Assembly: GCF_014334015.1 (NCBI RefSeq)
Contig: NZ_CP060488.1
Span: 124,001-188,000, forward strand
Source: Bacteroides sp. M10
GTDB taxonomy: Bacteria > Bacteroidota > Bacteroidia > Bacteroidales > Bacteroidaceae
Direction: 5' to 3'
DNA length: 64,000 bases
In this document: piece by piece, positions 25,130 to 46,067 of the stretch
Position numbering within the stretch: the first letter of the stretch is position 1
Layout of the letters: the number at the start of each line of letters is the position of its first letter
The notes under the pieces: model-generated
Databases searched by the model: none
What the model saw: the letters and a program-made list of their open reading frames with translations, nothing else
What the model was told of the DNA's origin: nothing
Position numbers and translations under genes: made by a program

Positions 25130-28123
25130 TTAAAATGTAAGACTAATACCTCCCGAAATCGTACGAATAGGAGTATAAAGTGCTGTTGTAGCCGAAATAT
25201 AGCTCTGACGCGGGTCAAGACCTTTACGTGCAGAGATCAAAGCAACATTATCAGCAGTGAAGTATACACGTACTTTGTCAAGCATGACTTTCTTCACCAG
25301 TTGTTGCGGCAGAGTATATCCTACAGTAATATTGTTGATACTCAAATAGTCAGAGCTTGTCAACCAACGAGTGGATGCAGAGTTTGTATATTTATCACCT
25401 GCATTCAGACGAGGAATATTGGAAGTCGGATTTTCCGGTGTCCAGGCATTGTATATGTCTTTGTGCCAGTTCCATCCTGCACTGCTTGAAGCACCTCCGT
25501 GCATCAGACGTCTGTAACCGGTATCATAGATTTTACCGCCCAACTGATAAGACAACTGAATAGAAGCGTCGAATCCGTAAGCTTCAAATGTTGTTCCCAA
25601 ACCACCGTAGACAGTAGGCATCATATCATCAGTAGCTACTTTATAATTTTCAGCTGTTGAATATTCCGGTGTTTTAATTGCATTGCCATTATCATCCTTT
25701 GCCCAGTACAAGGCTTCTCCGGTTTTTTCATCCACGCCTGCGTAATCAACCAGATACATACGGTACATAGATTCTCCCTCTTCATAGATACGGTCACTAT
25801 CAATCAGTTTTCCGTTCAAGTCAGGATGCAGTTTATTAATCTTATTCTTAACGAATGTTGCATTCAGGTTCACACTCCAATTAAATTTCTTATTGGCCAT
25901 GATCTGATAATTCAAATCAATTTCAACACCAGAGTTTGTCATAGAACCAACATTCATCGGAACTGCTGTATATCCCAAGCTACCGGCTGTCGGTCTATTG
26001 TAAAGCATATCTTTTGATTTGCGGCCAAAGTATTCAATACTACCATTCAACTTATTGTTGAACAGACCAAAATCGGCACCGATATTATATGAAGTAGAAG
26101 TTTCCCAAGTAATATCCGGGTTACCTTTATATAATAATGTACCATCGGCAAATGTACCATTAGCACCAGTCATCTTATATTGATCCAACCAAGGATAGTA
26201 GTTCTTTTCCAGAAGAACGCCCGGGTAAAGAATATCATCATTACCTTGCTGACCGAAAGAAGCTTTGAATTTCAACATATTCACCCATGTAATATCTTCC
26301 ATAAAGCTTTCACGAGTCAACATCCATGCCACACTTGCAGACCAGAAGTTACCCCAACGATTCTCCGGAGCAAAACGGGAAGAAGCATCACGACGATAAG
26401 AAACGTTTCCAAAATAGGTATCATTATATGAATAGTTCACACGACCAAAGAAACCTTTTGTTGAGTACAAGTCCTTTTTGCCACCTATCGTGAATTTATC
26501 AATCACATTACCCAAATAGAAGCTTTCCGGATTATACAGATTCTGTCCACTACCTTCCAACAGTGTATATTCATAGGAATAACCATCATAACCGGCTGTT
26601 ACATCGAAGTGATGTACATCTTTAAGTGCAAATTGATAATTTGCAACATACTGCTGGTCAAATCCATAAGTACGAATAGCAGCCTGATAAGCAGTACCAC
26701 CATAAGAAGCAGACTGTCCCATATATGCATTACCCATTTCATTTTGACGGGTATTGTCGATATTCAAACCGTAGCGTGCAGATATTGTCAAACCTGTGAT
26801 AGGAGTTATCTCTGCAAACCAGTTAGCGTTTATTACATCACTCAAATATTCTCTTTTGTTATAAATCAAGTCACCGGAAGGGTTAGCGATTGACATGAAA
26901 GAACGAGAGAAATTTGTACTCTGTCCGTCTCCATAGTCATACACTTTACGTCCGTTGTTCAATAGAATCTGCTTGTCAGCACCACGAACATACAAAGGAT
27001 AGATAGGTGCCATATTGTTTGCTATATAGAAGGCGTTTCCTGAAGAAGCGGTAGCATTTGCATCCTGATCTCCCGGGTAGCGGCTCTCTGTATTGACATA
27101 GCTAACATTAGCTCCAATTTTCAACCAGCTATACAGCTTATAATCTCCTTTAAAACGACCATTAAGACGTTTGAAACCTGAACCGGAAATGACTCCCTGG
27201 TCATCCAAGTATCCGAAAGCGAAATAATAAGTTCCTTTATCACTACCACCGGATGCACTCAGATTATATTCCTGACGAAGATTATTCTGGAAAGTTTCAT
27301 CTGCCCAATTATCCGGAGTATAGTAATATTGACCGTCAGAGTAACCCAAAGTAGCATTCGGATTCAGTTTACCATTGGAACCAACCAATAACTCACCCGG
27401 AGCCGTTGTATATACCTGATACCCCAAACCACCGGAAGCTTCGGACGGAAGAATCTTATTTGCTCTGATATTAGCATCTTCAGGAGAGTATCCCAAGCTT
27501 ATCTGAGAATTATAAATTGACTGATAGGCAGTTTCAATATAATTTTTCGGGCTAGTCATTACATCATATGTCTTAATTGCCCGTGAGTTAGCACCCCATT
27601 TAGCATCGAAGTTAATGCGAGCTTTACCGGAGGTACCTCTTTTAGTAGTAATCATAATAATACCGTTGGCACCACGAGCACCATACAATGCAGTAGAAGC
27701 AGCATCTTTTAATACTGTCATCGTTTCAATATCAGCAGAGTTTATGGAAGACAAATCTCCATCATAGGGAACTCCATCCACTACATATAAAGGTTCCATA
27801 CCTGCATTGATTGACCCAACACCACGGATACGAACTTTGGCAGACTCGCCCGGCTGACCATTATCACTCAAAATCTGTACACCGGCTACTGCACCAGCCA
27901 ACGCATTAGATACATTGGAAACTTGACGCTTTTCAATCTTATCAGCTTTCATCACGGAAGCAGATCCGGTAAAAGTTCCTTTGGTAGAAGTACCGTAAGC
28001 TGTAACAATCACCTCATCAAGCACCTCTGTATCAGACTTTAAGACGATTTTCAGTTTAGGTTTAATAGCCACTTCTTGTGTTTGCATTCCGATATACGAA
28101 ATCTGCAAAGTCTTTGCAGAACT
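25130..28123 (-). CDS. SusC-like receptor, silent cassette A (no start codon, promoter or signal peptide)
   Basis: About 998 codons of a SusC protein whose 5' end is missing. The frame enters at SSAKTLQISYIGMQTQEVAIKP, which in complete SusC proteins is residue 68 onward, then shows the TonB box region (LDEVIVTAYGTSTKG), plug (VRIRGVGSINAGMEPLYVVDG, VLKDAASTALYGARGANG) and a full barrel ending GGISLTF. No ATG precedes this point; upstream the frame reaches a stop at about 28144-28146, and the apparent start at 28108 is a TTG Leu codon. The first 53 bp (28071-28123) are identical to 35536-35588 of the complete plus-strand susC. I read it as a donor cassette activated by inversion, not a decayed gene, because the rest is intact. 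Confidence 0.9.
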   Translation of the reverse strand, partial: SSAKTLQISYIGMQTQEVAIKPKLKIVLKSDTEVLDEVIVTAYGTSTKGTFTGSASVMKADKIEKRQVSNVSNALAGAVAGVQILSDNGQPGESAKVRIRGVGSINAGMEPLYVVDGVPYDGDLSSINSADIETMTVLKDAASTALYGARGANGIIMITTKRGTSGKARINFDAKWGANSRAIKTYDVMTSPKNYIETAYQSIYNSQISLGYSPEDANIRANKILPSEASGGLGYQVYTTAPGELLVGSNGKLNPNATLGYSDGQYYYTPDNWADETFQNNLRQEYNLSASGGSDKGTYYFAFGYLDDQGVISGSGFKRLNGRFKGDYKLYSWLKIGANVSYVNTESRYPGDQDANATASSGNAFYIANNMAPIYPLYVRGADKQILLNNGRKVYDYGDGQSTNFSRSFMSIANPSGDLIYNKREYLSDVINANWFAEITPITGLTISARYGLNIDNTRQNEMGNAYMGQSASYGGTAYQAAIRTYGFDQQYVANYQFALKDVHHFDVTAGYDGYSYEYTLLEGSGQNLYNPESFYLGNVIDKFTIGGKKDLYSTKGFFGRVNYSYNDTYFGNVSYRRDASSRFAPENRWGNFWSASVAWMLTRESFMEDITWVNMLKFKASFGQQGNDDILYPGVLLEKNYYPWLDQYKMTGANGTFADGTLLYKGNPDITWETSTSYNIGADFGLFNNKLNGSIEYFGRKSKDMLYNRPTAGSLGYTAVPMNVGSMTNSGVEIDLNYQIMANKKFNWSVNLNATFVKNKINKLHPDLNGKLIDSDRIYEEGESMYRMYLVDYAGVDEKTGEALYWAKDDNGNAIKTPEYSTAENYKVATDDMMPTVYGGLGTTFEAYGFDASIQLSYQLGGKIYDTGYRRLMHGGASSSAGWNWHKDIYNAWTPENPTSNIPRLNAGDKYTNSASTRWLTSSDYLSINNITVGYTLPQQLVKKVMLDKVRVYFTADNVALISARKGLDPRQSYISATTALYTPIRTISGGISLTF
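28071..28123 (-). repeat. Recombination site A of the susC shufflon
   Basis: 53 bp identical, in inverted orientation, to 35536-35588. It starts exactly where cassette A's coding similarity starts and contains the 19 bp palindrome TCTGCAAAGACTTTGCAGA. The last 29 bp on the minus strand side (28095-28123) are shared by all three susC genes. Confidence 0.85.
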
Positions 28124-28578
28124 AAATATTTTATATATTATTGATTATCAATAATATATTGTCTGATATTTAGGCGTGGGAAGCTTTTTCTTTTCTTAAT
28201 CAATGATACATATATACTTAATTATTAGATAATTAAATAAATTCGTTATTATTGCCAGTCTATATATGTAATACTTAATCTCTACCCAAAATAGATGTAA
28301 TCATCTGATAATAAACGTGATATTTATTTAGTAAGGGAATACTATATGAAGAAAATTGTAACAAACTAATTCAGACTAATATTCAAATGTTGATTATTAA
28401 TCAAAGTAAATATGGCGTTCATTGAAATTTCGCAACCGAGTTATTGTTTCTTACGTAAAACTACTTATGTATATATTTATAAATAATAAGACCTGCAATT
28501 TCGATTAATTCTAAAATTGCAGGTCTCATCTATTTATTTAAAACTTATCCTTATATGGAGGCAATATTAAAAAATGTT
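28124..28578. other. Intergenic AT-rich region between cassette A and susD of cassette B
   Basis: No gene seen. It contains an odd 27 bp palindrome at 28133-28159 (13 bp arms around T28146) right next to site A, a smaller TTGATTATTAATCAA palindrome near 28390, and the terminator at 28489-28526. No convincing promoter pointing into cassette A was found. Confidence 0.6.
28489..28526 (-). terminator. Rho-independent terminator after susD of cassette B
   Basis: A 13 bp perfect stem, AGACCTGCAATTT (28489-28501) with AAATTGCAGGTCT (28514-28526), has a 12-base loop and T-rich sequence after it on the minus strand. It lies 52 bp after the susD stop. Confidence 0.75.
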
Positions 28579-29991
28579 TTATCGAGGTAGATTATTACTC
28601 CATCCCTCTGTTTGTATAACTCCAAAACCTGAATTGACTTCAAAAGAAGGTATTGGGTACACAAATTTTGCGATGTTGAAATTAGTGTACGATCCATCTG
28701 CTACACTAATAATTTTGCCTAATCTTCTTGCATCAAAGAAGCGATGTCCTTCTTGAACCAGTTCTAATTTTCTTTCTTTATCAATGGCATCAATAACCGT
28801 TTGATCCTCTGCTATTTCATTGTCATTCAAATCCGGATTTCTTTTGGCAGCTACTTCCAATAGTTTTTCTTTAGCTTTTCCATAATCAGGAGTTGCCTGT
28901 TTTGCATATGCTTCTGCCTGTATTAAATACATTTCAGGCAGTCTGAAAACCGGCAAGTTAGAAATCTGATTATTGGTGGTGATACCACGCATTTTTCCAC
29001 CAGTCCACGTACCGCCAAGAAGTGCCAGACGAATATCATTAGATGAATATTCTGCTATTGTTGCGCTGTTAATAGACAAACCGTATTTATTCCATAAAGT
29101 ATTCAGAGCATTAGCAGACAAATAATCATCTTCAGCTTTTGCTATAAAGAAAATGTCTTCTGTCGAAACAGTCAATGTCGTGTACATATTCTTATAGTCT
29201 TCTTTGGTTGATACAATTGTACCACCACTTAGGGTTATTGCCTCTTGAGCCGCTGTAATAGCCCCTTCGTAATTTTTCATATAGAGTTTTACGCGAGCTT
29301 CAAGTGCAGCAACTGCAGCCGTATTCATATACTGTTTACCTACATTTTCAACACCTTCTTTAGCATAATATTCTTTAGCCTTCGTTATATCATCAAGAAT
29401 CAGGCTATAATTTTGTTCTACACTGACTCTTGACACCTGTGAATAGGCAGGGATGGGTTCAGTAACGTTTACGATACCTAATGTCGTTTTATTGGCTTCC
29501 GAATACGGCAAACCAAACATATTAGTCAAATAGAAAGAGCAGAGGGCTTTAATTGCATAGGCTTGAGCGATACATCCTTCCACTTCTGCCAGATCCCCCT
29601 TTGTTACTTCTTTAAATGAAGCACCTTCTTTAATGATACGTGCACAACGGTCGATAGCCCAATATCCGTATGCCCATATTTCTTCTATGTATGAATTAGT
29701 ATCCAGTATCTGATAGCGGAAGATGTCATAGAAATGAGACGTTGCAACGGAATGTGAAGTGATATCCGTTGGCGCATCTCCAATTGCTAATACATCACGT
29801 CCCAGAAAACGATATGAACCTAATGTGTAATATACACCATTTAGAGCATTCTGAAAATCTTGGGTAGTAACCAAGGCTTCTTCTGTCGGAACAGAAGTTG
29901 ATGGCGTTTCTGTCAAGAAGTCATCGCATGCGGTGAATGAAATTGCCATCCAACCGGTTAATAAAGCAAATAATATTTTCTTCATTGTCAT
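28579..29991 (-). CDS. SusD/RagB lipoprotein of cassette B
   Basis: A 470-residue SusD-family lipoprotein. The signal peptide (MKKILFALLTGWMAISFTAC after an N-terminal MT) ends at a lipobox Cys followed by DDFLTETPSTSVPTEEA, a classic SusD N-terminus. Helical TPR-like parts (GCIAQAYAIKALCSFYLTNM) and the C-terminal motifs LPVFRLPEMYLIQAEAYAKQ, ERKLELVQEGHRFFDARRLG and YPIPSFEVN are present. It is intact, 19 bp after its susC. Like cassette A it depends on a susC without promoter or start in this orientation, so it is probably not expressed here. Confidence 0.95.
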   Translation of the reverse strand: MTMKKILFALLTGWMAISFTACDDFLTETPSTSVPTEEALVTTQDFQNALNGVYYTLGSYRFLGRDVLAIGDAPTDITSHSVATSHFYDIFRYQILDTNSYIEEIWAYGYWAIDRCARIIKEGASFKEVTKGDLAEVEGCIAQAYAIKALCSFYLTNMFGLPYSEANKTTLGIVNVTEPIPAYSQVSRVSVEQNYSLILDDITKAKEYYAKEGVENVGKQYMNTAAVAALEARVKLYMKNYEGAITAAQEAITLSGGTIVSTKEDYKNMYTTLTVSTEDIFFIAKAEDDYLSANALNTLWNKYGLSINSATIAEYSSNDIRLALLGGTWTGGKMRGITTNNQISNLPVFRLPEMYLIQAEAYAKQATPDYGKAKEKLLEVAAKRNPDLNDNEIAEDQTVIDAIDKERKLELVQEGHRFFDARRLGKIISVADGSYTNFNIAKFVYPIPSFEVNSGFGVIQTEGWSNNLPR

Positions 29992-30010
29992 AAATTTCTA
30001 AAGTTATTTT

Positions 30011-32845
30011 TTAGAAGCTAAGATTAAGACCGAACATGATATTTCTAGGTACAGGATATGCCCAAGACTGCATACCGGTAGATCTAGTTTGTGGATCAAA
30101 TCCTATAAAATCTTTAGCAGTGATAGTGAACAAATTGTCAGCAGAGATATAAACTCTTAAATTGTCAATAGCCACTTTATTCATAAGGTTCTTCGGAAGA
30201 GTATATCCTAAAACCATGGATTTCATTCTTAAATAAGAACCATTCATTAAGAAACGGCTGGAATTAGTTTCTGCTCCTGAGTTGTCTCCAGCTACAAATT
30301 GGGGTACGTCGGTTATATCTCCTGGCTTTTGCCAGCGGTTGTCATAAACATAGTTAGATACCGGGCCTAAGAAATAATGTCCAACCTGCATATCAAATGC
30401 AAATCCGGAGTTATATACTTTATTTCCCAAGGTGAAACTGGTATCAAAAGAGAAGTCAAAACCTTTGTATTTGAAATTCATTCCAAAGCCACCATAAAAT
30501 TTAGGATCGGCAGAACCTACAATTCGCTGACCAGCCTCATTTACATTTTTTGTTTTCTCATCCCCTTCTTGTCCTTTATACCACATTGCTTCTCCTGTTT
30601 CAGGATCCACTCCTGCATATTCCGGCATATAGAATGTATTATACGCTTCGCCAACTTTTCTGATAGTTAGAGTATTCTCAATTGGTTTTTCTGTGGCAAG
30701 TTTTATGATTTTATTTTTATTTGCCGTACCAGTGAAACGAACATCCCAACTGAAATCCTTATTTCTAAGTACGTTAGCGTTAATTAAAAATTCTATACCT
30801 TTGTTTTCCATCTCACCTACGTTTTTCAGGATAGACCCGAATCCAGTTGTGTAAGAAAGTGGTACATCAAATATCATATCTTTTGTCCGTTGGTTATAAT
30901 AGTCTACTTCGAGTGTCAGTCTTTCGAAGAAAACAGCATGGATACCAATATCGGCTTTTGCAACAGTTTCCCATTTTAGATCCGGATTGGCTATTTGGTA
31001 AGGAATAGCTCCAGGTTTACCATTATAAGAATATCCATAATTATACAATCCCATTGCTGCATAATAACCAATATCCTGATTACCTACAGTTCCATAACTA
31101 CCTCTGATAGTCAAATCTGTCAACCAACTTTTGGTATTTTCCATAAAGCTTTCGTTAGAGATACGGTATTTTGCTCCTATAGACCAGAAAGGAGCCCATT
31201 TGTTGTTTACACCAAATCTTGACGAGCCGTCATAACGGAAACTGCCTGACAGATAATATTTATCATTCAAGTTATATTCTGCATTCATAAAGAATGAAGA
31301 AAGAGTGCTTGCTTTGGTTGAAGATCCCGCCCCTGTTGGCTTGGAAGCATTGTCCAATTCAAAAACAGCATCACTAGGATATCCACTGGCAGCTGCATAA
31401 ATTGTTCTATAAGATATTTTCTGTGCTTCTTGTCCCAACAATACATTCAAATGATGCATGTCTTTGAAAGTGCGGTTGAAGTTTACGGTATTGGTAATGG
31501 TCAAGGTTGTTGCCCTTTCCTGGTTTCTTTGACCAAGCATACCGCTACCGGAATATTGAGGATTATAAATTGAACTGTAAAAGAACTCGTCTAAGTCAAT
31601 CAAACTCAATCCTGCATTTGTCTTCCATGTTAAGCCATCAATAATATTATAAGTAAAATATGGATTCACAACCAATGTAATCTGCTTTTGATTGCGTTTA
31701 TCACCTTTTTCTTTATCGTTAATAGCTACAGGATTATAATTAACATTTGTATTATATGTTCCGTCTTCATTGCGCACCTGTTCAAACGGACGGATGTCAT
31801 ATACTGCTACAATAGGATTAGTATATTGGCTTTCAGTCATAGTGTTGTTAATATCGGAGAGTGCTCCATTCACAGAAAGTCCATATCCTATCCGCCCGCT
31901 TTTTCCATCTAAACTGATACGTCCACTATAGCGTTTCATTCCAGTTCCGATGACGATACCTGTATTCTGAAAATATCCTCCACTAATATAATAGCGCAAA
32001 TTTTCATTCCCACCTTGAGCACTGATATCATATTCTTGTGAAAAACCATTTTGCAGAATCTCCTTCAGCCAATCCACACTCTTGATATTTTGCGTCAAGT
32101 CCACATTATACCAATCCATAACATATGCATTCAGCCATTCAGCAGAAGTCATGCCATCCTCACCGTCATATCCTGCATTTGTTAGTCCTTCGGTCCAGAT
32201 CTCTTTGTATTTATCCAGATTTGTCGTACGATAATTATGATCTATCTTACCTACAAAACTAGTTCCGACTTTTGCATTCACATTAAAACGCGCTTTTCCC
32301 AGACTACCTTTTTTAGTAGTAACTACAATTACTCCATTCGCTGCACGAGCTCCATAAATAGCTGTAGCTGTAGCATCTTTCAAAACTGTGATGGACTCAA
32401 TGTCGTTAGGATTGATATTAGCCATCGGACTTGCCGCCATATCCCCTGTTCCGGCTTTGTTATAAGCCCCCATTTTGTCTGTGTAAATGGCAATACCATC
32501 AATTACGTATAAAGGTTCAGTTCCGGAGTTCATTGAACCAACCCCACGAATAGTAGTAGAAGCATATGCACCAGGTTGTCCAGTCAAGCTATTTACTTGT
32601 AAACCAGCAACTGATCCTTCCAAAGACTTCATAAAGTTTGCATCTGTTTTTTTCATCAAGTCCTTGTTATCCACCGTTTGAGCAGATCCCGTAAATGCCG
32701 CTTTTTTAGTTACCCCATATCCGGTTACCACAACCTCATCTATTAGCTGTGCATCAGATTTGAGAATCACTCGCAAATTGGGCTTTATCGCCACTTCCTG
32801 CGTCTGCATACCGATGTACGAAATCTGCAAAGTCTTTGCAGAACT
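30011..32845 (-). CDS. SusC-like receptor, silent cassette B (no start codon, promoter or signal peptide)
   Basis: About 944 codons of a SusC protein lacking the leader. The frame enters at SSAKTLQISYIGMQTQEVAIKP, then LIDEVVVTGYGVTKKAAF (TonB box region), plug motifs (TTIRGVGSMNSGTEPLYVIDG, VLKDATATAIYGARAANG) and a complete barrel ending MFGLNLSF. The Leu codon TTG at 32830 is not a true start. Similarity to the complete susC begins exactly at the shared 29 bp site (32817-32845), after which the protein diverges strongly from cassettes A and P, so the three receptors should differ in ligand or antigen. It pairs with the susD at 28579. Intact apart from the missing 5' end. Confidence 0.9.
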   Translation of the reverse strand, partial: SSAKTLQISYIGMQTQEVAIKPNLRVILKSDAQLIDEVVVTGYGVTKKAAFTGSAQTVDNKDLMKKTDANFMKSLEGSVAGLQVNSLTGQPGAYASTTIRGVGSMNSGTEPLYVIDGIAIYTDKMGAYNKAGTGDMAASPMANINPNDIESITVLKDATATAIYGARAANGVIVVTTKKGSLGKARFNVNAKVGTSFVGKIDHNYRTTNLDKYKEIWTEGLTNAGYDGEDGMTSAEWLNAYVMDWYNVDLTQNIKSVDWLKEILQNGFSQEYDISAQGGNENLRYYISGGYFQNTGIVIGTGMKRYSGRISLDGKSGRIGYGLSVNGALSDINNTMTESQYTNPIVAVYDIRPFEQVRNEDGTYNTNVNYNPVAINDKEKGDKRNQKQITLVVNPYFTYNIIDGLTWKTNAGLSLIDLDEFFYSSIYNPQYSGSGMLGQRNQERATTLTITNTVNFNRTFKDMHHLNVLLGQEAQKISYRTIYAAASGYPSDAVFELDNASKPTGAGSSTKASTLSSFFMNAEYNLNDKYYLSGSFRYDGSSRFGVNNKWAPFWSIGAKYRISNESFMENTKSWLTDLTIRGSYGTVGNQDIGYYAAMGLYNYGYSYNGKPGAIPYQIANPDLKWETVAKADIGIHAVFFERLTLEVDYYNQRTKDMIFDVPLSYTTGFGSILKNVGEMENKGIEFLINANVLRNKDFSWDVRFTGTANKNKIIKLATEKPIENTLTIRKVGEAYNTFYMPEYAGVDPETGEAMWYKGQEGDEKTKNVNEAGQRIVGSADPKFYGGFGMNFKYKGFDFSFDTSFTLGNKVYNSGFAFDMQVGHYFLGPVSNYVYDNRWQKPGDITDVPQFVAGDNSGAETNSSRFLMNGSYLRMKSMVLGYTLPKNLMNKVAIDNLRVYISADNLFTITAKDFIGFDPQTRSTGMQSWAYPVPRNIMFGLNLSF
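32817..32845 (-). repeat. Recombination site B of the susC shufflon
   Basis: 29 bp identical to 28095-28123 (same strand) and to 35536-35564 (opposite strand), including the palindrome TCTGCAAAGACTTTGCAGA. Sites A and B also share TATTT just upstream, which site P lacks, consistent with a common cassette-side flank. Confidence 0.85.
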
Positions 32846-33695
32846 AAATACAACTATAATATGCTGATTACTAATAAAATATACGATGTTTACTTTCCTT
32901 CGGCAATAAATCTTTTGTTGTGGTTATTATGCAGATTATCAATATATTAAACACCTATCAAACATATTAATTTGCTGATTTATGATACCAGATTTCTATC
33001 AAAAATAAGACATAACCGTCTATTAATTAATCATTTAAGTTCTTATCTTATATGATATAAGCTAAAACTTATTTCCATCTTAACTGTTGAAGATGGTTTT
33101 CTTGTTCTAAATTATATCCAATAATTATTGATTATAATAATATATTCATTAGCAAACGATAATCTACGAAAAAGAAAAACTCCAGATGAAAAAATGCATA
33201 TTTTATTACTGCATGTTTTAAAATATGCAGGGTGGATTCAAATCTTCTCCAAAATCGCAGAGAATATGATTGATGAATATTCATATTGAATAGTTATGTG
33301 CTTTTTCTGTATCAAAGAGATTGTGTAATTACATCTAATTATGTAAAAAGAAGTATTTATCATTTGTTTGATGCTAAAATGAAAGAACCCAAAATGCCGG
33401 ATTTTAATAGCTACAAGAGGCTGTCAGGTTTATAAATTAGCTTTTAATCCTTTCCTTTTAAAGAAAACAAAGGCTTCTCTACGACCAATAACTCGTTCCT
33501 TTTAAAGGAACGAGTTATTCCTTTAAATGGGACGAGTGATGATATTCGTAATAATGGTGTATATTTAGATTATGTATATGCGTTTTCGGAACTTATATTG
33601 CATATTTTTTCATTTAATTATACACACTTTCTTCTATTAGAGAAAATTATACCTTCCATTTCTATAACCAAATCTTAAAAACAGAACACTTTCGT
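32846..33695. other. Gene-free region between site B and the recombinase gene
   Basis: 850 bp of AT-rich DNA with no credible ORF. The main structure is the palindrome cluster at 33487-33519 and related CCTTT(T)AAA words near 33451-33465 and 33521-33530. I saw no promoter clearly reading into cassette B. Confidence 0.5.
33487..33519. repeat. 33 bp palindrome downstream of the recombinase gene
   Basis: Perfect 16 bp arms (AATAACTCGTTCCTTT and its reverse complement) flank a single T. A related half-unit, TTCCTTTAAATGGGACGAG, follows at about 33518-33536, and another, TTTCCTTTTAAAGAAA, lies at about 33451-33466. No T-run follows on either strand, so a simple terminator is less likely than a protein-binding site or RNA structure. 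Confidence 0.6.
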
Positions 33696-34886
33696 TTAGT
33701 TTTTGTGCTTATTATTATTTTTTGATGAGGCAGTTTTCTCAAGATCACGCACCACTGTAATATCCATTATATTCGCATATACCTGCGTGGTCTTTACACT
33801 TTTATGTCCTAACAGTTTTTGCACAGTAGTTATATTGGCACCATTATATAATAATAAGGTAGCATTTGTATGACGGGCGGTGTGAAACGATACACGTTTA
33901 TCAATTTTAGCCAAGCCTGCCAATATGTTTAATTCCTTATTAATATTAGAATTGTCTTTCAACTTGAAAAAACTATTGAGGTCATCTTTATAGCGTTGCA
34001 ATATCTGGATTCCTTTACCCTCAAATAATAAATATAAAGGAAGGCGTACCTCCATACCTGTTTTGACAGATTTGTATATTATCCAAGTCTCCTGATGGAA
34101 CTCAACAATATTTGCAGAGGTCAGATTAGTGAAATCAGAATATCGTAATCCTGCATAACAACAAAATAAAAAAGCATCTTTTGTTTTTTGTAGTCTCGTA
34201 TATCTTCCAGTCAGCTGCAAATTCTCAAATTTGTGTAACTCTTCCGGAGCTAAGTGTGTATGGCTTCCTTCTATACTTTTAATTTTATATTTTCTAAAGG
34301 CATACTTCTGTATATCCATATACTCCTTATTTATTGCAACATTAATATATCTTTTCAGATGCTTCATGTGCTTAGCAATAGTATTAAGGTGATAACCTTT
34401 AGATTGCAGGTAATTATCAAATGAAGACACAAACTCAAATGTCAAATCAGTAAATAATACCTCTTTCTTGAATTCCTGAAGTAATTCAAGCGTGGAAAGG
34501 TGATTCTGACGGGTGCTTTCTTTCAAAGAAGAATTGGCTATCTCCTCTTTAAAGAAAGTCAAAAACGACCTTCCGTTGCTTAGAGGTTTATCAATAGAAT
34601 TTTTTAATAAATCTAACGATATGGACTTTCCCTGTTGCCATAGTCCAAGTTCTGTTTGCTCAATAGCTGCTATATTTTCATATAACATACGATTCAAAAC
34701 ATTCGCATTAGGATGATTCTTCACCATTTTTCGTTTGGCATCCCACTGTTCCGGTTTGAGATATATTTTGGTGGAGAAATACATTTTTTTCCTGTTCAGG
34801 TAGGCTTCTACCTGTACTAATGCCATTCCTCTTTTATTCAATCTCTTCTTTCTGTTAAACACAAGGTTGTAACTGATCTTTTCCAT
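33696..34886 (-). CDS. Tyrosine site-specific recombinase, likely the shufflon invertase
   Basis: A 396-residue phage-integrase-family recombinase of the Bacteroides type. It has an N-terminal arm-type domain (KRGMALVQVEAYLNRKKMYF), a SAM-like core-binding domain (about 105-205) and a catalytic domain with Arg248 (AGLRYSDF), His335 and Arg338 (FHTARHTNA), His361 (LGHKSVKTTQ) and the nucleophile Tyr370 (QVYANIM). All catalytic residues are present. It lies between site B (32845) and site P (35536), inside the segment it would invert, divergent from the complete susC. No element-transfer genes are nearby, which argues for a dedicated invertase and not an integrative element integrase. Its link to the sites is inferred from position. 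Confidence 0.9.
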   Translation of the reverse strand: MEKISYNLVFNRKKRLNKRGMALVQVEAYLNRKKMYFSTKIYLKPEQWDAKRKMVKNHPNANVLNRMLYENIAAIEQTELGLWQQGKSISLDLLKNSIDKPLSNGRSFLTFFKEEIANSSLKESTRQNHLSTLELLQEFKKEVLFTDLTFEFVSSFDNYLQSKGYHLNTIAKHMKHLKRYINVAINKEYMDIQKYAFRKYKIKSIEGSHTHLAPEELHKFENLQLTGRYTRLQKTKDAFLFCCYAGLRYSDFTNLTSANIVEFHQETWIIYKSVKTGMEVRLPLYLLFEGKGIQILQRYKDDLNSFFKLKDNSNINKELNILAGLAKIDKRVSFHTARHTNATLLLYNGANITTVQKLLGHKSVKTTQVYANIMDITVVRDLEKTASSKNNNKHKN

Positions 34887-35334
34887 ACTTTCATTTTTAA
34901 TTAATAATAGAACAAATTAGACGTAATTCTGTGCTATATCAGAGGCGAATAAGCATTAATATCTCTAAAAAATAAATCTTCAAATAACTGTGTATTCACA
35001 AAACTTTAAATTAAATGCCACTTTTTTATTCGCTTTTTTACGAAAAAAGCAAAAAGAATGGCTTTTAAAGGTGTTTTATGACTAAAAACGAGTAAAAGAA
35101 ATATTAAAAGATGCATTTTGCTCATACAAAGTGTCAATAGCTATTTTAACAATCAACGCTTTTGGTTGAGAAAAATATGCTTATCGGCATAAATACAGCT
35201 TATAAAATAACAAAATGTTATATTTGCAACCTTTTTTTATTAATATAATTGCTAGTTTCAGTTTTATTAATATATTTGCAAATTGTTAGAGTAAAGATAC
35301 AAATAATGTAAAGTTAAACTTTAAGAGAGAATTT
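34887..35334. other. Divergent promoter region of the recombinase and expressed susC
   Basis: 448 bp without genes. It contains a hairpin GCTTTTTT-ACG-AAAAAAGC (35032-35050) and the susC promoter at 35249-35278. A second TATATTTG (35219-35226) lacks a -33 partner. The whole region lies inside the predicted invertible segment, so promoter and recombinase move together. Confidence 0.55.
35249..35278 (+). promoter_or_regulatory. Bacteroides-type promoter driving the expressed susC
   Basis: -7 element TATATTTG (35271-35278) and -33 TTG (35249-35251), spaced 19 bp, lie 56 bp before the ATG at 35335. No similar promoter stands before cassettes A or B. Confidence 0.65.
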
Positions 35335-38300
35335 ATGAAAAGAAAATTAATGCTGTTATTGGCATGCCTTTTTGTGGGCATAGGCCTAGTAACTGCCCAG
35401 ACTCAAAAGGTCACAGGCGTTGTGATTTCTGAAGAAGACGGGCAGCCAGTTGTTGGCGCTTCTGTGTTGGTAAAAGGTACCACTCTGGGTACAATCACAG
35501 ATGTAGATGGTAATTTTAATTTGTCGAATGTACCAAGTTCTGCAAAGACTTTGCAGATTTCGTATATCGGAATGCAAACACAAGAAGTAGTTATTAAGCC
35601 AAATTTGAAAGTTGTATTAAAGGCTGACGCCCAAAAGCTGGACGAAGTAGTAGTTACCGCTATGGGTATTTCACGTGAAAAGAAAGCATTGGGATATGCC
35701 GTACAAGACGTCAAATCGGATGCGTTGACACGTGCTGCTAATACAGATTTAGCGGGAGCCTTACAAGGAAAAGTATCAGGTATTGACATCACCCCATCAT
35801 CAGGTATGCCGGGTGCTTCTTCAAAGATTACGATTCGCGGTTCTCGTTCTTTCACCGGAGACAATACTCCATTGTATGTAATTGATGGTATGCCTATCGC
35901 TTCTACCGCAGACGTGAGTACCTCTCTTACCGATGGAGCGTATGGAACGGACTATGCTAACCGTGCTGTCGACATTGACCCTAATGATATAGAAAGTATC
36001 AATATATTAAAGGGACAAGCCGCTTCTGCTTTGTATGGTATGAGAGCTTCCAATGGTGTTATCGTTATCACCACCAAAAGTGGTAAAGGAGCAGATAAAG
36101 GAAAACCGACTATTACTTTCAGTACTAACCTTTCCTTTGATAAGATTTCAACTCTTCCGGAACTGCAACAAGAATACGCACAAGGTTCAGGCGGTACTTT
36201 CGATCCGTCATCTCCTTTCGCATGGGGTCCTAAGATTTCCGAATTGGCTAACGATCCTACCTACGGAGGAAATACAGACAACAGTTACACTAGCCAATAT
36301 GGCAAACAGTCCGGAAAATACTATGTTCCTCAACTTGCAGCTGCCGGCATGAATCCGTGGGCTACTCCACAGGCATATAACAACATGAAGGACTTTTTTG
36401 AAACAGGTGTATCTTGGAGCAATAACGTCAATGTAGCCCAGAGATTCGACAAAGGTAACTACTCCTTTTCTTTGGGTAACACCACGAGTAATGGTATCGT
36501 TCCATCAACTGGTATGGATAGATATAACGTGAAAATGTCCGCCGAAGCACAACTCCATCCTAACTGGACTACCGGATTTAATGGAAACTTTGTGACTTCA
36601 AAAATCTCCAAACAGTCTACAGCCAACACCAGTGTGGTTGCTACGATCTATAATGCACCCGTCAGCTATAATATGGCCGGCATTCCTTCTCACATAGAAG
36701 GCGACCCTTACACACAAAATACATATCGTGACAGCTGGATCGACGATGCATATTGGGCAGTTGACAATAACCAGTTCTCTGAACGTTCACAACGTTTCTT
36801 CGGAAATGCTTTCGTGAAATACACCACTAAATTTGGAACGGACAACCACAAACTGGATATTAAATACCAGATCGGTGATGACGCTTACACTACCAATTAT
36901 TCAGAAATCTACGGATATGGAAGTACCTGGGCACCTACAGGTGAAGATTCAGAATACCATTACACTGTTAATGAGTTAAACTCACTGTTAACCGCTGCTT
37001 ACACATGGAATATCAACGAAGAATGGACCCTGGACGCGTTGATTGGTAATGAGTTTGTGGATAAAAAGACAAAATATGAATACGCATATAGCATGAACTT
37101 CAATTTCCCGGGATGGAATCATCTGAATAATGCTTCTGTATTCTCTAACGAAAGCCAATACAACAAGAAGCGGACGGTAGGTAATTTCGCCAACTTGTCA
37201 GTAGCATGGAAAAACATGCTCTATCTAAGCGGAAGTATACGTAACGATATTGTTTCAAGCATGCCACGTGACAACCGTTCTTTCACTTATCCTTCAGTGT
37301 CATTAGGATTCATCTTCACCGAACTGGCTCCCCTGAAGAATAACATATTGACTTTCGGTAAGATACGTGCTTCTTATGCAGAAGTTGGTATGGCCGGTGA
37401 TTATACTCAAAGTTATTATTATACTCCGTCTTATGGTGGCGGCTTCTATATGGGAAATCCTATTGTTTATCCAATTAATGGAGCAATGGCTTACATTCCA
37501 TATTATAAGGTATATGACCCTAACTTAAAACCACAAAATACAAAATCATACGAACTGGGAGCAGATCTTACTTTCTTAAACGGACTGGTAACCTTGAATT
37601 ATACCTATTCACGTCAGAATGTAAAAGATCAGATATTCGAAGTTCCTTTGGCAGGTTCAACCGGAGCCTCCAGTATGATAATGAATGGAGGTAAAATCCA
37701 CACAAATACTCACGAGTTGACATTGGGCGTATCTCCGGTAGATACCAAAAACTTCAAACTCGACTTCGCTTTCAACTTCTCCAAAATCGACAATTACGTA
37801 GACGAATTGGCTCCAGGAGTAGAAAGTATTATGTTAGGAGGATTTGTAACTCCGCAGGTACGTGCCGGAATTGGTGACAAGTTCCCTGTGATCTATGGAA
37901 AAAGCTATATGCGTAATGACGAAGGCAAGATTGTAGTAGACAAAAACGGACTTCCCATGCAGGGAGAAGATGCGGTTATCGGAACTGTATCTCCTGACTT
38001 CCGTTTAGGTTTCAATACAAATATCGAATTGTACAAGTTCCGTATTTCTGCAGTATTCGACTGGAAACAGGGAGGACAAATGTATAGTGGTACTGCAGGT
38101 GAAATGAACTATTACGGTGTGAGCAAATTATCTGGTGATATGCGTAATACCGAATTCATTGTGGAAAACTCCGTTAAAGAAACAGGAAAAGATGCAGACG
38201 GTAACTCAATTTATGCGCCCAATGATATAAAGGTAACAGACGCTCAAGCATATTTCACAAGAAGAAGATCCATTGACGAATCCTACATTTATGATAATTC

Positions 38301-38523
38301 TTATATCAAACTGCGTGAATTATCAGTAAGCTATCCGGTATTCTCAAAGAAATGGCTGAATGTGAATGTGAATGTTTTTGCCCGCAACATTTTGGTTTGG
38401 TCTGAAATGAAAGGCTTCGATCCGGAAGCTTCACAGGGTAATGACAACATGGGAGGTGCATTCGAACGTTTCTCTCTTCCGGGAACAGCCAGCTATGGTT
38501 TTGGATTTAATGTAAAATTCTAA
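35335..38523 (+). CDS. SusC-like TonB-dependent receptor, expressed copy P of the shufflon
   Basis: A complete 1062-residue SusC. The signal peptide MKRKLMLLLACLFVGIGLVTAQ is followed by a CarboxypepD_reg-like domain (TGVVISEEDGQPVVGASVLV, residues about 25-100), TonB box region LDEVVVTAMGISREK, plug (ITIRGSRSFTGDNTPLYVIDG, INILKGQAASALYGMRASNG) and barrel ending YGFGFNVKF. Codons 1-67 (signal peptide and first half of the regulatory-like domain) are the constant leader. From codon 68 (35536) it shares the recombination site with cassettes A and B in the same codon phase, so inversion would give in-frame fusions with the TonB box, plug and barrel all exchanged. The partner susD starts 16 bp downstream. 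Substrate unknown. Confidence 0.95.
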   Translation: MKRKLMLLLACLFVGIGLVTAQTQKVTGVVISEEDGQPVVGASVLVKGTTLGTITDVDGNFNLSNVPSSAKTLQISYIGMQTQEVVIKPNLKVVLKADAQKLDEVVVTAMGISREKKALGYAVQDVKSDALTRAANTDLAGALQGKVSGIDITPSSGMPGASSKITIRGSRSFTGDNTPLYVIDGMPIASTADVSTSLTDGAYGTDYANRAVDIDPNDIESINILKGQAASALYGMRASNGVIVITTKSGKGADKGKPTITFSTNLSFDKISTLPELQQEYAQGSGGTFDPSSPFAWGPKISELANDPTYGGNTDNSYTSQYGKQSGKYYVPQLAAAGMNPWATPQAYNNMKDFFETGVSWSNNVNVAQRFDKGNYSFSLGNTTSNGIVPSTGMDRYNVKMSAEAQLHPNWTTGFNGNFVTSKISKQSTANTSVVATIYNAPVSYNMAGIPSHIEGDPYTQNTYRDSWIDDAYWAVDNNQFSERSQRFFGNAFVKYTTKFGTDNHKLDIKYQIGDDAYTTNYSEIYGYGSTWAPTGEDSEYHYTVNELNSLLTAAYTWNINEEWTLDALIGNEFVDKKTKYEYAYSMNFNFPGWNHLNNASVFSNESQYNKKRTVGNFANLSVAWKNMLYLSGSIRNDIVSSMPRDNRSFTYPSVSLGFIFTELAPLKNNILTFGKIRASYAEVGMAGDYTQSYYYTPSYGGGFYMGNPIVYPINGAMAYIPYYKVYDPNLKPQNTKSYELGADLTFLNGLVTLNYTYSRQNVKDQIFEVPLAGSTGASSMIMNGGKIHTNTHELTLGVSPVDTKNFKLDFAFNFSKIDNYVDELAPGVESIMLGGFVTPQVRAGIGDKFPVIYGKSYMRNDEGKIVVDKNGLPMQGEDAVIGTVSPDFRLGFNTNIELYKFRISAVFDWKQGGQMYSGTAGEMNYYGVSKLSGDMRNTEFIVENSVKETGKDADGNSIYAPNDIKVTDAQAYFTRRRSIDESYIYDNSYIKLRELSVSYPVFSKKWLNVNVNVFARNILVWSEMKGFDPEASQGNDNMGGAFERFSLPGTASYGFGFNVKF
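35536..35588 (+). repeat. Recombination site P of the susC shufflon
   Basis: Inside the complete susC (codons 68-85). 53 bp identical to site A and, over 29 bp, to site B, both in opposite orientation. The palindrome TCTGCAAAGACTTTGCAGA (35539-35557) is the probable recombinase recognition core. Inversions of 2.7 kb (with B) or 7.4 kb (with A) would relocate the promoter, leader and recombinase gene. Confidence 0.85.
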
Positions 38524-38539
38524 TTAGCTAAAAAGAAAG

Positions 38540-40093
38540 ATGAAAACATATAATATAATCAAAGGCATTTTTGCCGCTACTGTTTTATCAGTTGTCTTTT
38601 CCGGATGTTCGGAAGATGCAATGGATAGAATCAATAAGGATCACGGACATACGCAAAGCGTGGCCGGAAGATTCATTCTGACAGATGTAATAACCTCTAC
38701 CGCATTCTCTAATGCAGGAGGTGATTTCAATACTTATCTATCTGCTTACATTGAATATGAAGTAGGTGTTGACAACCAGTTGTATTATGCAGAAACCAGA
38801 GAAAGCGAACCGACCTCATCTTCCACTTTCAATAATACATGGAATGGTCTGTATTCCACATTGAAATCCGCCCGTATCATTATCAATCAATGCAGTGAGG
38901 GAGGAATAGATTATGGAAATTTTGTAACCAAAGGTATGGCAGAGGTGTTGGCTGCTTATAATTGTGCATTGATAGCCGATATGTTCGGAGATGCTCCATG
39001 CAGCCAGGCAGCCTTAGTTGACGAAAATGGTTCTCCCGTTTACCTGACTCCTAAAATGGATAAACAAGAAGAGATCTATACACAAGCAATGCAATACCTG
39101 GACGATGCTATTGCAGACTTGCAGAAAGAGGATCTGATAGACCCGGGAGCTCAAGATTTGTTATATCAGGGCGATGCTGAAAAATGGCTAAAGTTGGCGT
39201 ATGGTCTGAAAGCGCGTTACACAATGCACCTTCTTAAAAGATCTGCCAACAAAGACGCTGACATGGAGAAGGTTTTGGAATATGTGGATAACTCTTTCGA
39301 AAGTGCAGAAGAGCAAGCAGCATTCGACGTATATGACGCTAACAATATAAATCCGCTTTACGGTTTCTTTGTGGCACGTGCCGGATTAGGTGCGAGCGAA
39401 AGCATGAGAAGCAAACTGGCAGAATACAACGACCCACGCCTGTCCAGAGCTTTCATCACTAAACAAGGTGCATCTGGAAAAGAACAAGCCCCAGGAAGTG
39501 CTGACAATGCCGTATATGCGCCTAACGGTTCTCCGGAACAAGGTACTTCCAAGTATGGAACTTCTTTATTTATGTATTCTATATCGGCACCCACACTGTT
39601 ATTGAGCTATCATGAATTAAAGTTCCTGGAAGCAGAAGCTCTATGCAGATTGGGACGTGATGCAAAAAGTGCATTAAAAGACGCTGTAGTAGCCGGATTG
39701 TTAAATGCAGAAAATAGCTTCAGCGTTTCAAGAAAGGAATTGGGCAAAACGCTCATCAACCCGGCAAGTAGTATTACAGATACTGAAGCCGAAAGCTATT
39801 TTGATAATACGGTAGAAGCCAAATATACAGCCGAACCGCTGAAAACAACAATGACTCAAAAATACTTCGCATTATGGGGAGCTTCAGGAGAAGCGACAGA
39901 ATCTTACAATGATGTTCGCAGAATGAAAGGACTAGGCGAAAACTTTATTGAGCTAAAAAATCCAAACTCTTTCCCATTACGTTGTCCTTATGGCAATAGC
40001 GACACAACAACGAATGCCGAAGTGAAAGCAGCATACGGAAACGGACAATATGTGTATAGTGAAAATGTTTGGTGGGCAGGCGGAAGCAGATAA
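38540..40093 (+). CDS. SusD-like lipoprotein (SusD-like type 2) paired with susC P
   Basis: A 517-residue lipoprotein with signal peptide GIFAATVLSVVFSGC and lipobox Cys. The sequence follows the SusD-like 2 family pattern and differs from the SusD proteins of cassettes A and B: NTWNGLYSTLKSARIIINQC, YNCALIADMFGDAPCSQA, KWLKLAYGLKARYTMHLLKR, and the C-terminal LLSYHELKFLEAEALCRLGRD and YFALWGASGEATESYNDVRRM. This family often occurs with SusC proteins suspected of peptide or protein uptake, but the substrate here is unknown. It starts 16 bp after susC P and ends before a strong terminator, so the transcription unit has two genes. Intact. Confidence 0.9.
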   Translation: MKTYNIIKGIFAATVLSVVFSGCSEDAMDRINKDHGHTQSVAGRFILTDVITSTAFSNAGGDFNTYLSAYIEYEVGVDNQLYYAETRESEPTSSSTFNNTWNGLYSTLKSARIIINQCSEGGIDYGNFVTKGMAEVLAAYNCALIADMFGDAPCSQAALVDENGSPVYLTPKMDKQEEIYTQAMQYLDDAIADLQKEDLIDPGAQDLLYQGDAEKWLKLAYGLKARYTMHLLKRSANKDADMEKVLEYVDNSFESAEEQAAFDVYDANNINPLYGFFVARAGLGASESMRSKLAEYNDPRLSRAFITKQGASGKEQAPGSADNAVYAPNGSPEQGTSKYGTSLFMYSISAPTLLLSYHELKFLEAEALCRLGRDAKSALKDAVVAGLLNAENSFSVSRKELGKTLINPASSITDTEAESYFDNTVEAKYTAEPLKTTMTQKYFALWGASGEATESYNDVRRMKGLGENFIELKNPNSFPLRCPYGNSDTTTNAEVKAAYGNGQYVYSENVWWAGGSR

Positions 40094-45991: not shown

Positions 45992-46067
45992 GATTCGCTA
46001 GCTCAGCAGGTAGAGCACAACACTTTTAATGTTGGGGTCCTGGGTTCGAGCCCCAGGCGGATCACCA
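45992..46067 (+). tRNA. tRNA-Lys (anticodon UUU)
   Basis: A complete cloverleaf: acceptor GATTCGC pairs with GCGGATC, D arm GCTC-AGCAGGTA-GAGC, anticodon stem CAACA/TGTTG around loop CTTTTAA (anticodon TTT), variable GGGTC, T arm CTGGG-TTCGAGC-CCCAG, discriminator A and encoded CCA (46065-46067). Its 3' end from CCCAGG onward is repeated at 55761, so it is the insertion target of the island that follows. Confidence 0.95.

What the first reader, a model, noticed from the sequence alone, without database searches (positions are those of the whole stretch)
25130..40093. Three-way SusC/SusD DNA-inversion cassette (shufflon) with one promoter and leader
Only the plus-strand susC (35335) has promoter, start codon and signal peptide. 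Two minus-strand susC genes start abruptly at the same codon (residue 68 equivalent) with a 29 bp sequence common to all three (53 bp between P and A), in inverted orientation to P and in the same codon phase. Each has its own intact susD; A also has a lipoprotein. A tyrosine recombinase with all catalytic residues lies between the sites. Inversion of 2.7 kb or 7.4 kb would give in-frame full-length SusC proteins with a different plug, barrel and partner SusD. Similar SusC/D shuffling has been reported in B. fragilis and B. thetaiotaomicron; this exact locus may be new.
Basis: partly seen in the sequence, partly recalled or inferred. Interest (0 to 1): 0.92.

Follow-up and report, generated by a model that had tools for sequence, protein, structure and literature searches.

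The report
Flipping switch between nutrient transporters
A gut Bacteroides carries a DNA switch whose promoter-and-signal-peptide piece flips, together with the enzyme that probably flips it, between three nutrient-transporter genes so that one is made at a time; the kind of switch is already known, and public sequences show all three settings of this one.

Summary
One susC at 35335 has promoter, signal peptide and first 72 codons; two leaderless susC bodies on the other strand (A, B) begin at the same 29-bp site; a tyrosine recombinase lies between.

Inversion is more than a prediction. The exact leader+A protein exists in public data, and near-exact leader+B too. P and A bodies also occur behind the flank that stands before B here, so each cassette has been found joined to both ends of the moving piece. 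In one pair of near-identical relatives, three of four cassettes changed flank exactly at a 26-bp site; two inversions explain it.

The main refinement: what flips is a head (rear flank, recombinase, promoter, leader). It faces the hflX side in 11 and the marC side in 9 of 20 anchored loci.

This belongs to the known Bacteroides SusC/SusD shufflons (Tsr0667 in B. fragilis; BT2267 beside BT2264 and BT2268 'MAFF' in B. theta). The solved BT_2264 chain matches a cassette of this switch and its listed sequence starts just after the split, without leader. The recombinase's role is inferred. New member of a known kind.

The parts
32846..35535 (+). Head: the piece that flips (rear flank, recombinase, promoter, leader)
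   Evidence: Bounded by sites B and P. The same unit is found facing either chromosomal flank in relatives, with the recombinase on the strand opposite the leader in 30 of 30 leader-recombinase pairs, overlapping loci counted twice. Its rear flank is joined to A or P bodies in public proteins.
35536..35561 (+). Recombination site P (26 bp), codons 68 onward of the expressed susC
   Evidence: exchange is confined to these 26 bp in the L013/L014 pair
32820..32845 (-). Recombination site B (26 bp), inverted to P
28098..28123 (-). Recombination site A (26 bp), inverted to P, direct to B
35271..35278 (+). Putative -7 promoter element TATATTTG (Bacteroides TAnnTTTG, consensus recalled)
   Evidence: The element and the stretch after it are conserved in heads of relatives (35 aligned rows, of which 5 are not heads and were disregarded)
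35335..35550 (+). Leader: signal peptide plus first part of the N-terminal extension domain, 72 codons before LQISYIG
   Evidence: Pfam PF13715 covers residues 26-107 of P, so the split falls inside that domain; 72-residue leader found on A bodies. Signal peptide read by eye.
33696..34886 (-). Tyrosine recombinase (396 aa)
   Evidence: PF17293, PF13102, PF00589; R, HxxR and GH..Y motifs (motifs recalled) present
35536..38523 (+). Cassette P: susC body, currently leader-fused
   Evidence: TIGR04056
38540..40093 (+). Cassette P: susD partner
   Evidence: PF12771
30011..32845 (-). Cassette B: leaderless susC body
   Evidence: TIGR04056 from model position 47; seen leader-fused in P0001, P0077, P0080
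28579..29991 (-). Cassette B: susD partner
   Evidence: PF07980, PF14322
25130..28123 (-). Cassette A: leaderless susC body
   Evidence: TIGR04056 from model position 47; exact leader fusion P0121
23500..25104 (-). Cassette A: susD partner
   Evidence: PF07980, PF14322
22584..23483 (-). Cassette A: lipoprotein-like ORF, no family hit at E 0.001
   Evidence: lipoprotein signal read by eye

Best explanation
This is a site-specific DNA-inversion switch (shufflon) that selects which of three SusC/SusD outer-membrane transporters is made. A single promoter, signal peptide and first 72 codons sit in an invertible head that also encodes a tyrosine recombinase. Recombination between the site at the leader's end and an inverted site at a silent susC body flips the head (2.7 kb, P x B) or the head plus cassette B (7.4 kb, P x A). 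The leader is thereby fused in frame to another susC body with its own susD, and the former partner is left leaderless. Shown: the anatomy, natural occurrence of each cassette joined to each head end, and exchange confined to 26 bp in one relative pair. Inferred: that this recombinase is the enzyme, that the promoter is where I place it, and that the switch alters which peptide or glycan is imported or which surface epitope is shown.
For: Leader+A predicted from the window equals P0121 letter for letter. Of the 120 listed A relatives (of 7993 hits), 48 carry leader sequence, 67 do not, and 5 lack the motif. Leader+B: P0001 (4 differences over 990 residues) and P0077 (1 difference over 526). 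Rear flank joined to P (P0348-P0352) and to A (P0144, P0145, P0147, P0134). L013/L014: upstream flanks match one-to-one at 95.2-99.8% and downstream cassettes at 100% over 400 bp, with three of four pairings changed; the first base after the 26 bp travels with the cassette. The head faces hflX in 11 and marC in 9 of 20 anchored loci, the window included (L031 left out as a second copy of L004). The L001 active and L002 silent cassettes are 99.0% identical in DNA. Site and recombinase co-occur.
Against: No reads, PCR or knockout were available, and no whole genome of the window's own strain is held. Recombinase dependence is untested. Two relatives (L011, L025) have a broken recombinase frame yet keep two sites each. 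Two others keep the recombinase without leader, susC or site (L005, L006). 50 of 112 site-less genus genomes hold a recombinase relative. In the L001/L002 and L021/L024 pairs, bases about 10 to 19 past the 26 bp seem to stay with the head, which a plain crossover inside the 26 bp does not explain. P0001 has an odd first 11 residues, and P0077 and P0080 end in unrelated sequence. No listed protein is an exact leader+B or an exact leaderless copy of the window's P body.
Confidence: 0.94

Rival explanations
1. The rearrangements arise by ordinary homologous recombination between similar susC 5' ends, and the recombinase is a bystander.
For: The stretches that begin at the sites are alike over 131-170 bp (73-80%). 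In two pairs, sequence beyond the 26 bp seems exchanged or converted.
Against: In L013/L014 three flank-cassette pairings changed exactly at 26 bp although cassettes differ from the next base on. Site and recombinase are linked: 39 of 44 genomes with both on one contig have them within 1.5 kb.
Confidence: 0.05
2. A and B are decayed, truncated susC genes left by deletions, never expressed.
For: Both lack start, signal peptide and the conserved promoter in this window.
Against: Both occur leader-fused in public data; reading frames and partner susD genes are open.
Confidence: 0.01
3. A different recombinase elsewhere in the genome flips the head in trans; the local gene is redundant.
For: Tsr0667 is reported to act on several regions of one genome (PMC4747536, introduction passage). 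Sites persist in L011 and L025 although the local recombinase frame is broken.
Against: In G046, the genome with the closest recombinase of the 158 searched (99%), the only matches of the site within 3 mismatches are the two beside the recombinase.
Confidence: 0.08

Closest known systems
B. fragilis SusC/SusD shufflons inverted by Tsr0667 (Nakayama-Imaohji 2009; that paper is not held, seen only through passages of PMC4747536 and PMC11852207)
   Same: Recombinase, several SusC/SusD clusters, multiple inversion. L014 shows the same head and site beside marC with a recombinase 75% identical to the window's; its contig length equals the one I recall for B. fragilis NCTC 9343.
   Different: Tsr0667 is described as acting on three SusC/SusD clusters and nine other regions. 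Here no second target was seen in the closest genome. Cassettes differ.
B. thetaiotaomicron BT2260-BT2269 locus (BT2264/BT2263, BT2267 invertase homologue, BT2268/BT2269 'MAFF'; PMC6080902, passages)
   Same: Two SusC/SusD pairs in opposite orientation with an invertase homologue. The solved BT_2264 chain (5fq6) differs from a silent cassette of this switch in L004 at 3 of 984 positions and starts 7 residues after the split. That tdk lies nearby in B. theta (BT2275) is recalled.
   Different: None of the window's three cassettes is BT2264; P has the strongest match to it of the three. In the passages read the authors offer promoter inversion of BT2264/63 as a possible explanation and do not describe a shared leader.
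R64 shufflon (Rci/sfx)
   Same: Constant part joined to alternative parts by multiple inversion (recalled; PMC11852207 passages on shufflons).
   Different: Here the constant head carries recombinase and promoter and itself flips, and each option is a whole transporter pair. Relationship to Rci not tested.

Membership tests
Bacteroides SusC/SusD shufflon (Tsr0667/BT2267 type) | Several SusC/SusD pairs at one locus | tested here: met
   Three pairs
Bacteroides SusC/SusD shufflon (Tsr0667/BT2267 type) | Inverted repeats inside the susC 5' coding region, in frame | tested here: met
Bacteroides SusC/SusD shufflon (Tsr0667/BT2267 type) | Linked tyrosine recombinase with catalytic motifs | tested here: met
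Bacteroides SusC/SusD shufflon (Tsr0667/BT2267 type) | More than two sites, several arrangements in nature | tested here: met
   Three sites; each cassette seen at both head ends in window plus public proteins
Bacteroides SusC/SusD shufflon (Tsr0667/BT2267 type) | Recombinase is the orthologue of Tsr0667 or BT2267 | tested here: inconclusive
Bacteroides SusC/SusD shufflon (Tsr0667/BT2267 type) | Inversion depends on the recombinase | not testable with these tools
   Needs a knockout
ON/OFF invertible promoter | One orientation leaves no gene expressed | tested here: not met
   In the loci whose leader-joined site was read, the leader is fused to a susC body of 924-1010 aa; one row (L017_340) is cut by the locus end and is the same site as L016_13340

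The most novel reading that the evidence does not exclude
A Bacteroides-wide expression port at hflX-marC: one self-flipping head into which a large pool of interchangeable SusC/SusD cassettes is swapped within and between species. It would explain both the opposite regulation of BT2264/63 and BT2268/69 in IgA-coated B. theta and why the listed BT_2264 protein has no signal peptide.
Probability: 0.5. Interest if true: 0.65.

Novelty: new member of a known kind. Interest (0 to 1): 0.5.

Why it matters
SusC/SusD transporters decide which nutrients a gut Bacteroides can take up and are abundant surface proteins. A conserved switch that exchanges the whole transporter pair means strains with the same genes can differ in uptake and perhaps in phage or antibody targets. 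It also offers a concrete, PCR-testable mechanism for the reported rise of BT2268/69 with fall of BT2264/63: a head flip rather than ordinary transcriptional control. Gene models of silent cassettes, including the listed BT_2264 sequence, lack their real N terminus, which would mislead signal-peptide and proteomics predictions.

Tried and rejected
Decayed-gene and assembly-artefact readings were rejected: leader-fused and leaderless forms occur on many public contigs (for B the evidence is thinner). Chance similarity of susC starts was rejected by the control pattern. A structured 5' untranslated region as regulator: no unusual fold (z -0.6 and +0.7). The sigma-70 promoter scan is uninformative here, with 30 hits against a mean of 35 in shuffles; terminator-like sites were 9 against 4.2, two of them the palindromes of sites P and A. 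Rfam at gathering threshold: one tRNA at 45992-46064 and nothing in the switch. A paper search for the site letters found three papers with unrelated titles. Between-species transfer of cassettes was examined: 60 cassette records fall into 41 clusters at 90% and 23 at 50% protein identity (nine loci left out beforehand: L003, L004, L017, L032 as repeats or overlaps, L005-L008 and L012 without readable sites). Some shared cassettes are closer than hflX (93.9 against 86.7% DNA, L018/L031) and others are not, so transfer is left as possible but unproven. The species is not settled: flanks are 94-95% identical in DNA to L023, whose contig length equals the one I recall for B. ovatus ATCC 8483, and many of the named close protein hits are B. 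ovatus, though others are named B. xylanisolvens or Ca. B. intestinigallinarum.

Full report
ANATOMY. The susC with a leader (P, 1062 aa) has a CarboxypepD_reg-like N-terminal domain at residues 26-107, a plug and a barrel. A and B match the SusC family model from its position 47 to its end, as bodies without the N terminus. The split falls after residue 72 (...NVPSSAKT|LQISYIG), inside that N-terminal domain. Each body is followed by its own susD; A has an extra lipoprotein-like ORF with no Pfam or NCBIfam hit at E 0.001. The recombinase has arm-binding, SAM-like and catalytic domains and the R, HxxR and GH..Y motifs.

THE THREE STATES EXIST IN NATURE. Protein search with A returned 7993 hits, 120 listed. 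Of these 120, 48 carry leader sequence, 67 do not (38 start at the motif), and 5 lack the motif. One, P0121 (111 member sequences, 57 contigs), equals the leader+A protein predicted from the window letter for letter. Contig counts for single sequences are large on both sides: leader-fused P0137 303, leaderless P0125 626. They are contigs, not independent strains. For B, 7493 hits, 120 listed: P0001 equals the prediction with 4 differences over 990 residues (its first 11 residues are foreign), P0077 with 1 difference over the first 526; P0080 carries the leader too, but my comparison rule stopped at residue 88, where two differences lie close together. No listed protein is an exact leader+B. 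For P, 4387 hits, 120 listed: my count gave 91 leader-fused, 14 more that are leader-type by their last residues, 12 leaderless or rear-flank, and 3 without the motif.

BOTH ENDS OF THE HEAD. The in-frame flank before B in the window reads ...SNQHIIVVF up to the site. The same nine residues stand before P bodies in P0348-P0352 (2-4 differences to the window's P body) and before A bodies in P0144, P0145, P0147 and P0134. So each cassette has been seen at the leader end and at the rear end: P-leader and B-rear in the window, the other four combinations elsewhere. Rear-flank+P is the reciprocal product expected from the 2.7-kb inversion.

RELATIVES. The genome-contig scan with the recombinase gave 12 loci, of which L012 is only a distant match. 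A scan of 158 genus genomes for the site found 46; for the recombinase at E 1e-80 or better, 95. 45 of 46 site-bearing genomes have the recombinase (the miss, G155, has its one site at a contig end), against 50 of 112 others. From 18 of the 46 I took 20 stretches. Twenty loci have a leader and a chromosomal anchor (hflX, marC, coiled-coil gene or tdk), the window included and L031 left out as a second copy of L004; the head faces hflX in 11 and marC in 9 (L003 and L013 come from one genome bin, G003). Eight further loci with a leader had no anchor in reach (L007-L010, L016, L017, L027, L028). The recombinase is on the strand opposite the leader in 30 of 30 pairs, overlapping loci counted twice. 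In the loci with both kinds of site, the silent site behind the recombinase is inverted to the leader-joined site (my reading).

BASE-LEVEL EXCHANGE. L013 and L014 hold the same four cassettes. Upstream flanks match one-to-one (99.0, 99.8, 95.2, 98.5% over 400 bp) and downstream cassettes match one-to-one (100% over 400 bp), but three of the four pairings differ. Partners change exactly at the 26-bp site: the base before it stays with the flank, the base after it goes with the cassette. Two successive inversions (first active site x outermost silent site, then the middle silent site x the new active site) turn one order into the other; this path is my reasoning. L001/L002 (cassette 99.0% identical in DNA, active in one, silent in the other) and L021/L024 (96.5%) are further swaps. 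In these two, bases up to about 19 and about 10 past the 26 bp seem to stay with the head. I cannot explain that; conversion of the short flank is one possibility.

HOW IT WORKS. The simplest model is that the head is the moving part. P x B flips 2.7 kb and expresses B; P x A flips 7.4 kb, expresses A, and carries B to the marC side. In L023 the B cassette (99.8% protein identity) indeed lies on the marC side. Only the susC next to the leader gets the promoter and signal peptide; its susD follows. The putative promoter and the stretch after it are conserved across heads.

WHAT IS KNOWN. PMC4747536 (passages) and PMC11852207 (passages) state that Tsr0667 of B. fragilis shuffles SusC/SusD clusters; the primary 2009 paper is not held. 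PMC6080902 (passages) describes BT2268/BT2269 ('MAFF') with BT2264/BT2263 in reverse orientation and the invertase homologue BT2267, reports BT2264/63 down and BT2268/69 up with 7-6IgA, and offers promoter inversion as a possible explanation. The PDB chain listed for BT_2264 (5fq6_B, 984 aa) aligns to the silent L004 cassette with 3 differences (counted in the printed alignment) and begins at its residue 13, MQTQEV, past the split. So that listed sequence is a leaderless gene model, and the protein can hardly reach the outer membrane without a leader (inference; how it was produced for crystallisation I did not read). PMC7782687 (passages) mentions oligopeptide ligands in the Bt2261-64 structure. 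In seven paper searches, whose listings show at most 21 papers each, I saw no title or abstract start that describes this locus in B. ovatus; passages of PMC10939037, PMC5111406 and PMC13114119 did not either. Only open-licence papers are searched.

VERDICT. A real and evidently active inversion switch, a new member of a known kind. The fresh parts are the head-flip geometry, the complete set of junctions, the base-level reassortment, and the link to BT_2264 and MAFF.

Noticed in passing
L005 9971-11176; L006 8487-9680: Recombinase alone between hflX and the coiled-coil gene (L005) or hflX and marC (L006), with no leader, site or susC: the transporters seem to have been lost while the enzyme stayed.
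   Followed up: partly
L011 10001-11175; L025 9865-11039: Recombinase frame broken near residue 140 in both; the two loci have the same active cassette (95.5% protein identity): possibly naturally locked switches.
   Followed up: partly
L007 9348 and 12041: Head intact, but both ends joined to unrelated DNA exactly at the site edges, with the 26 bp missing: probably an assembly artefact.
   Followed up: partly
L016, L017 (G054 C1 1498992-1511424): Two recombinase-leader heads about 10 kb apart in opposite orientation in one genome.
   Followed up: no
window 33470-33560: Strong hairpin 3' of the recombinase (z -5.0): perhaps a terminator or insulator of the head.
   Followed up: no
window 35279-35334 and relatives: The 5' untranslated stretch of the head looks more conserved across distant relatives than the recombinase gene; reason unknown.
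   Followed up: no
G018 C15 and C18, G025 C8, G010 C74, G155 C181: Five of 112 sites lie within 130 bp of the low end of a contig (high ends not checked), as expected if assemblers stumble over mixed orientations or repeats.
   Followed up: no
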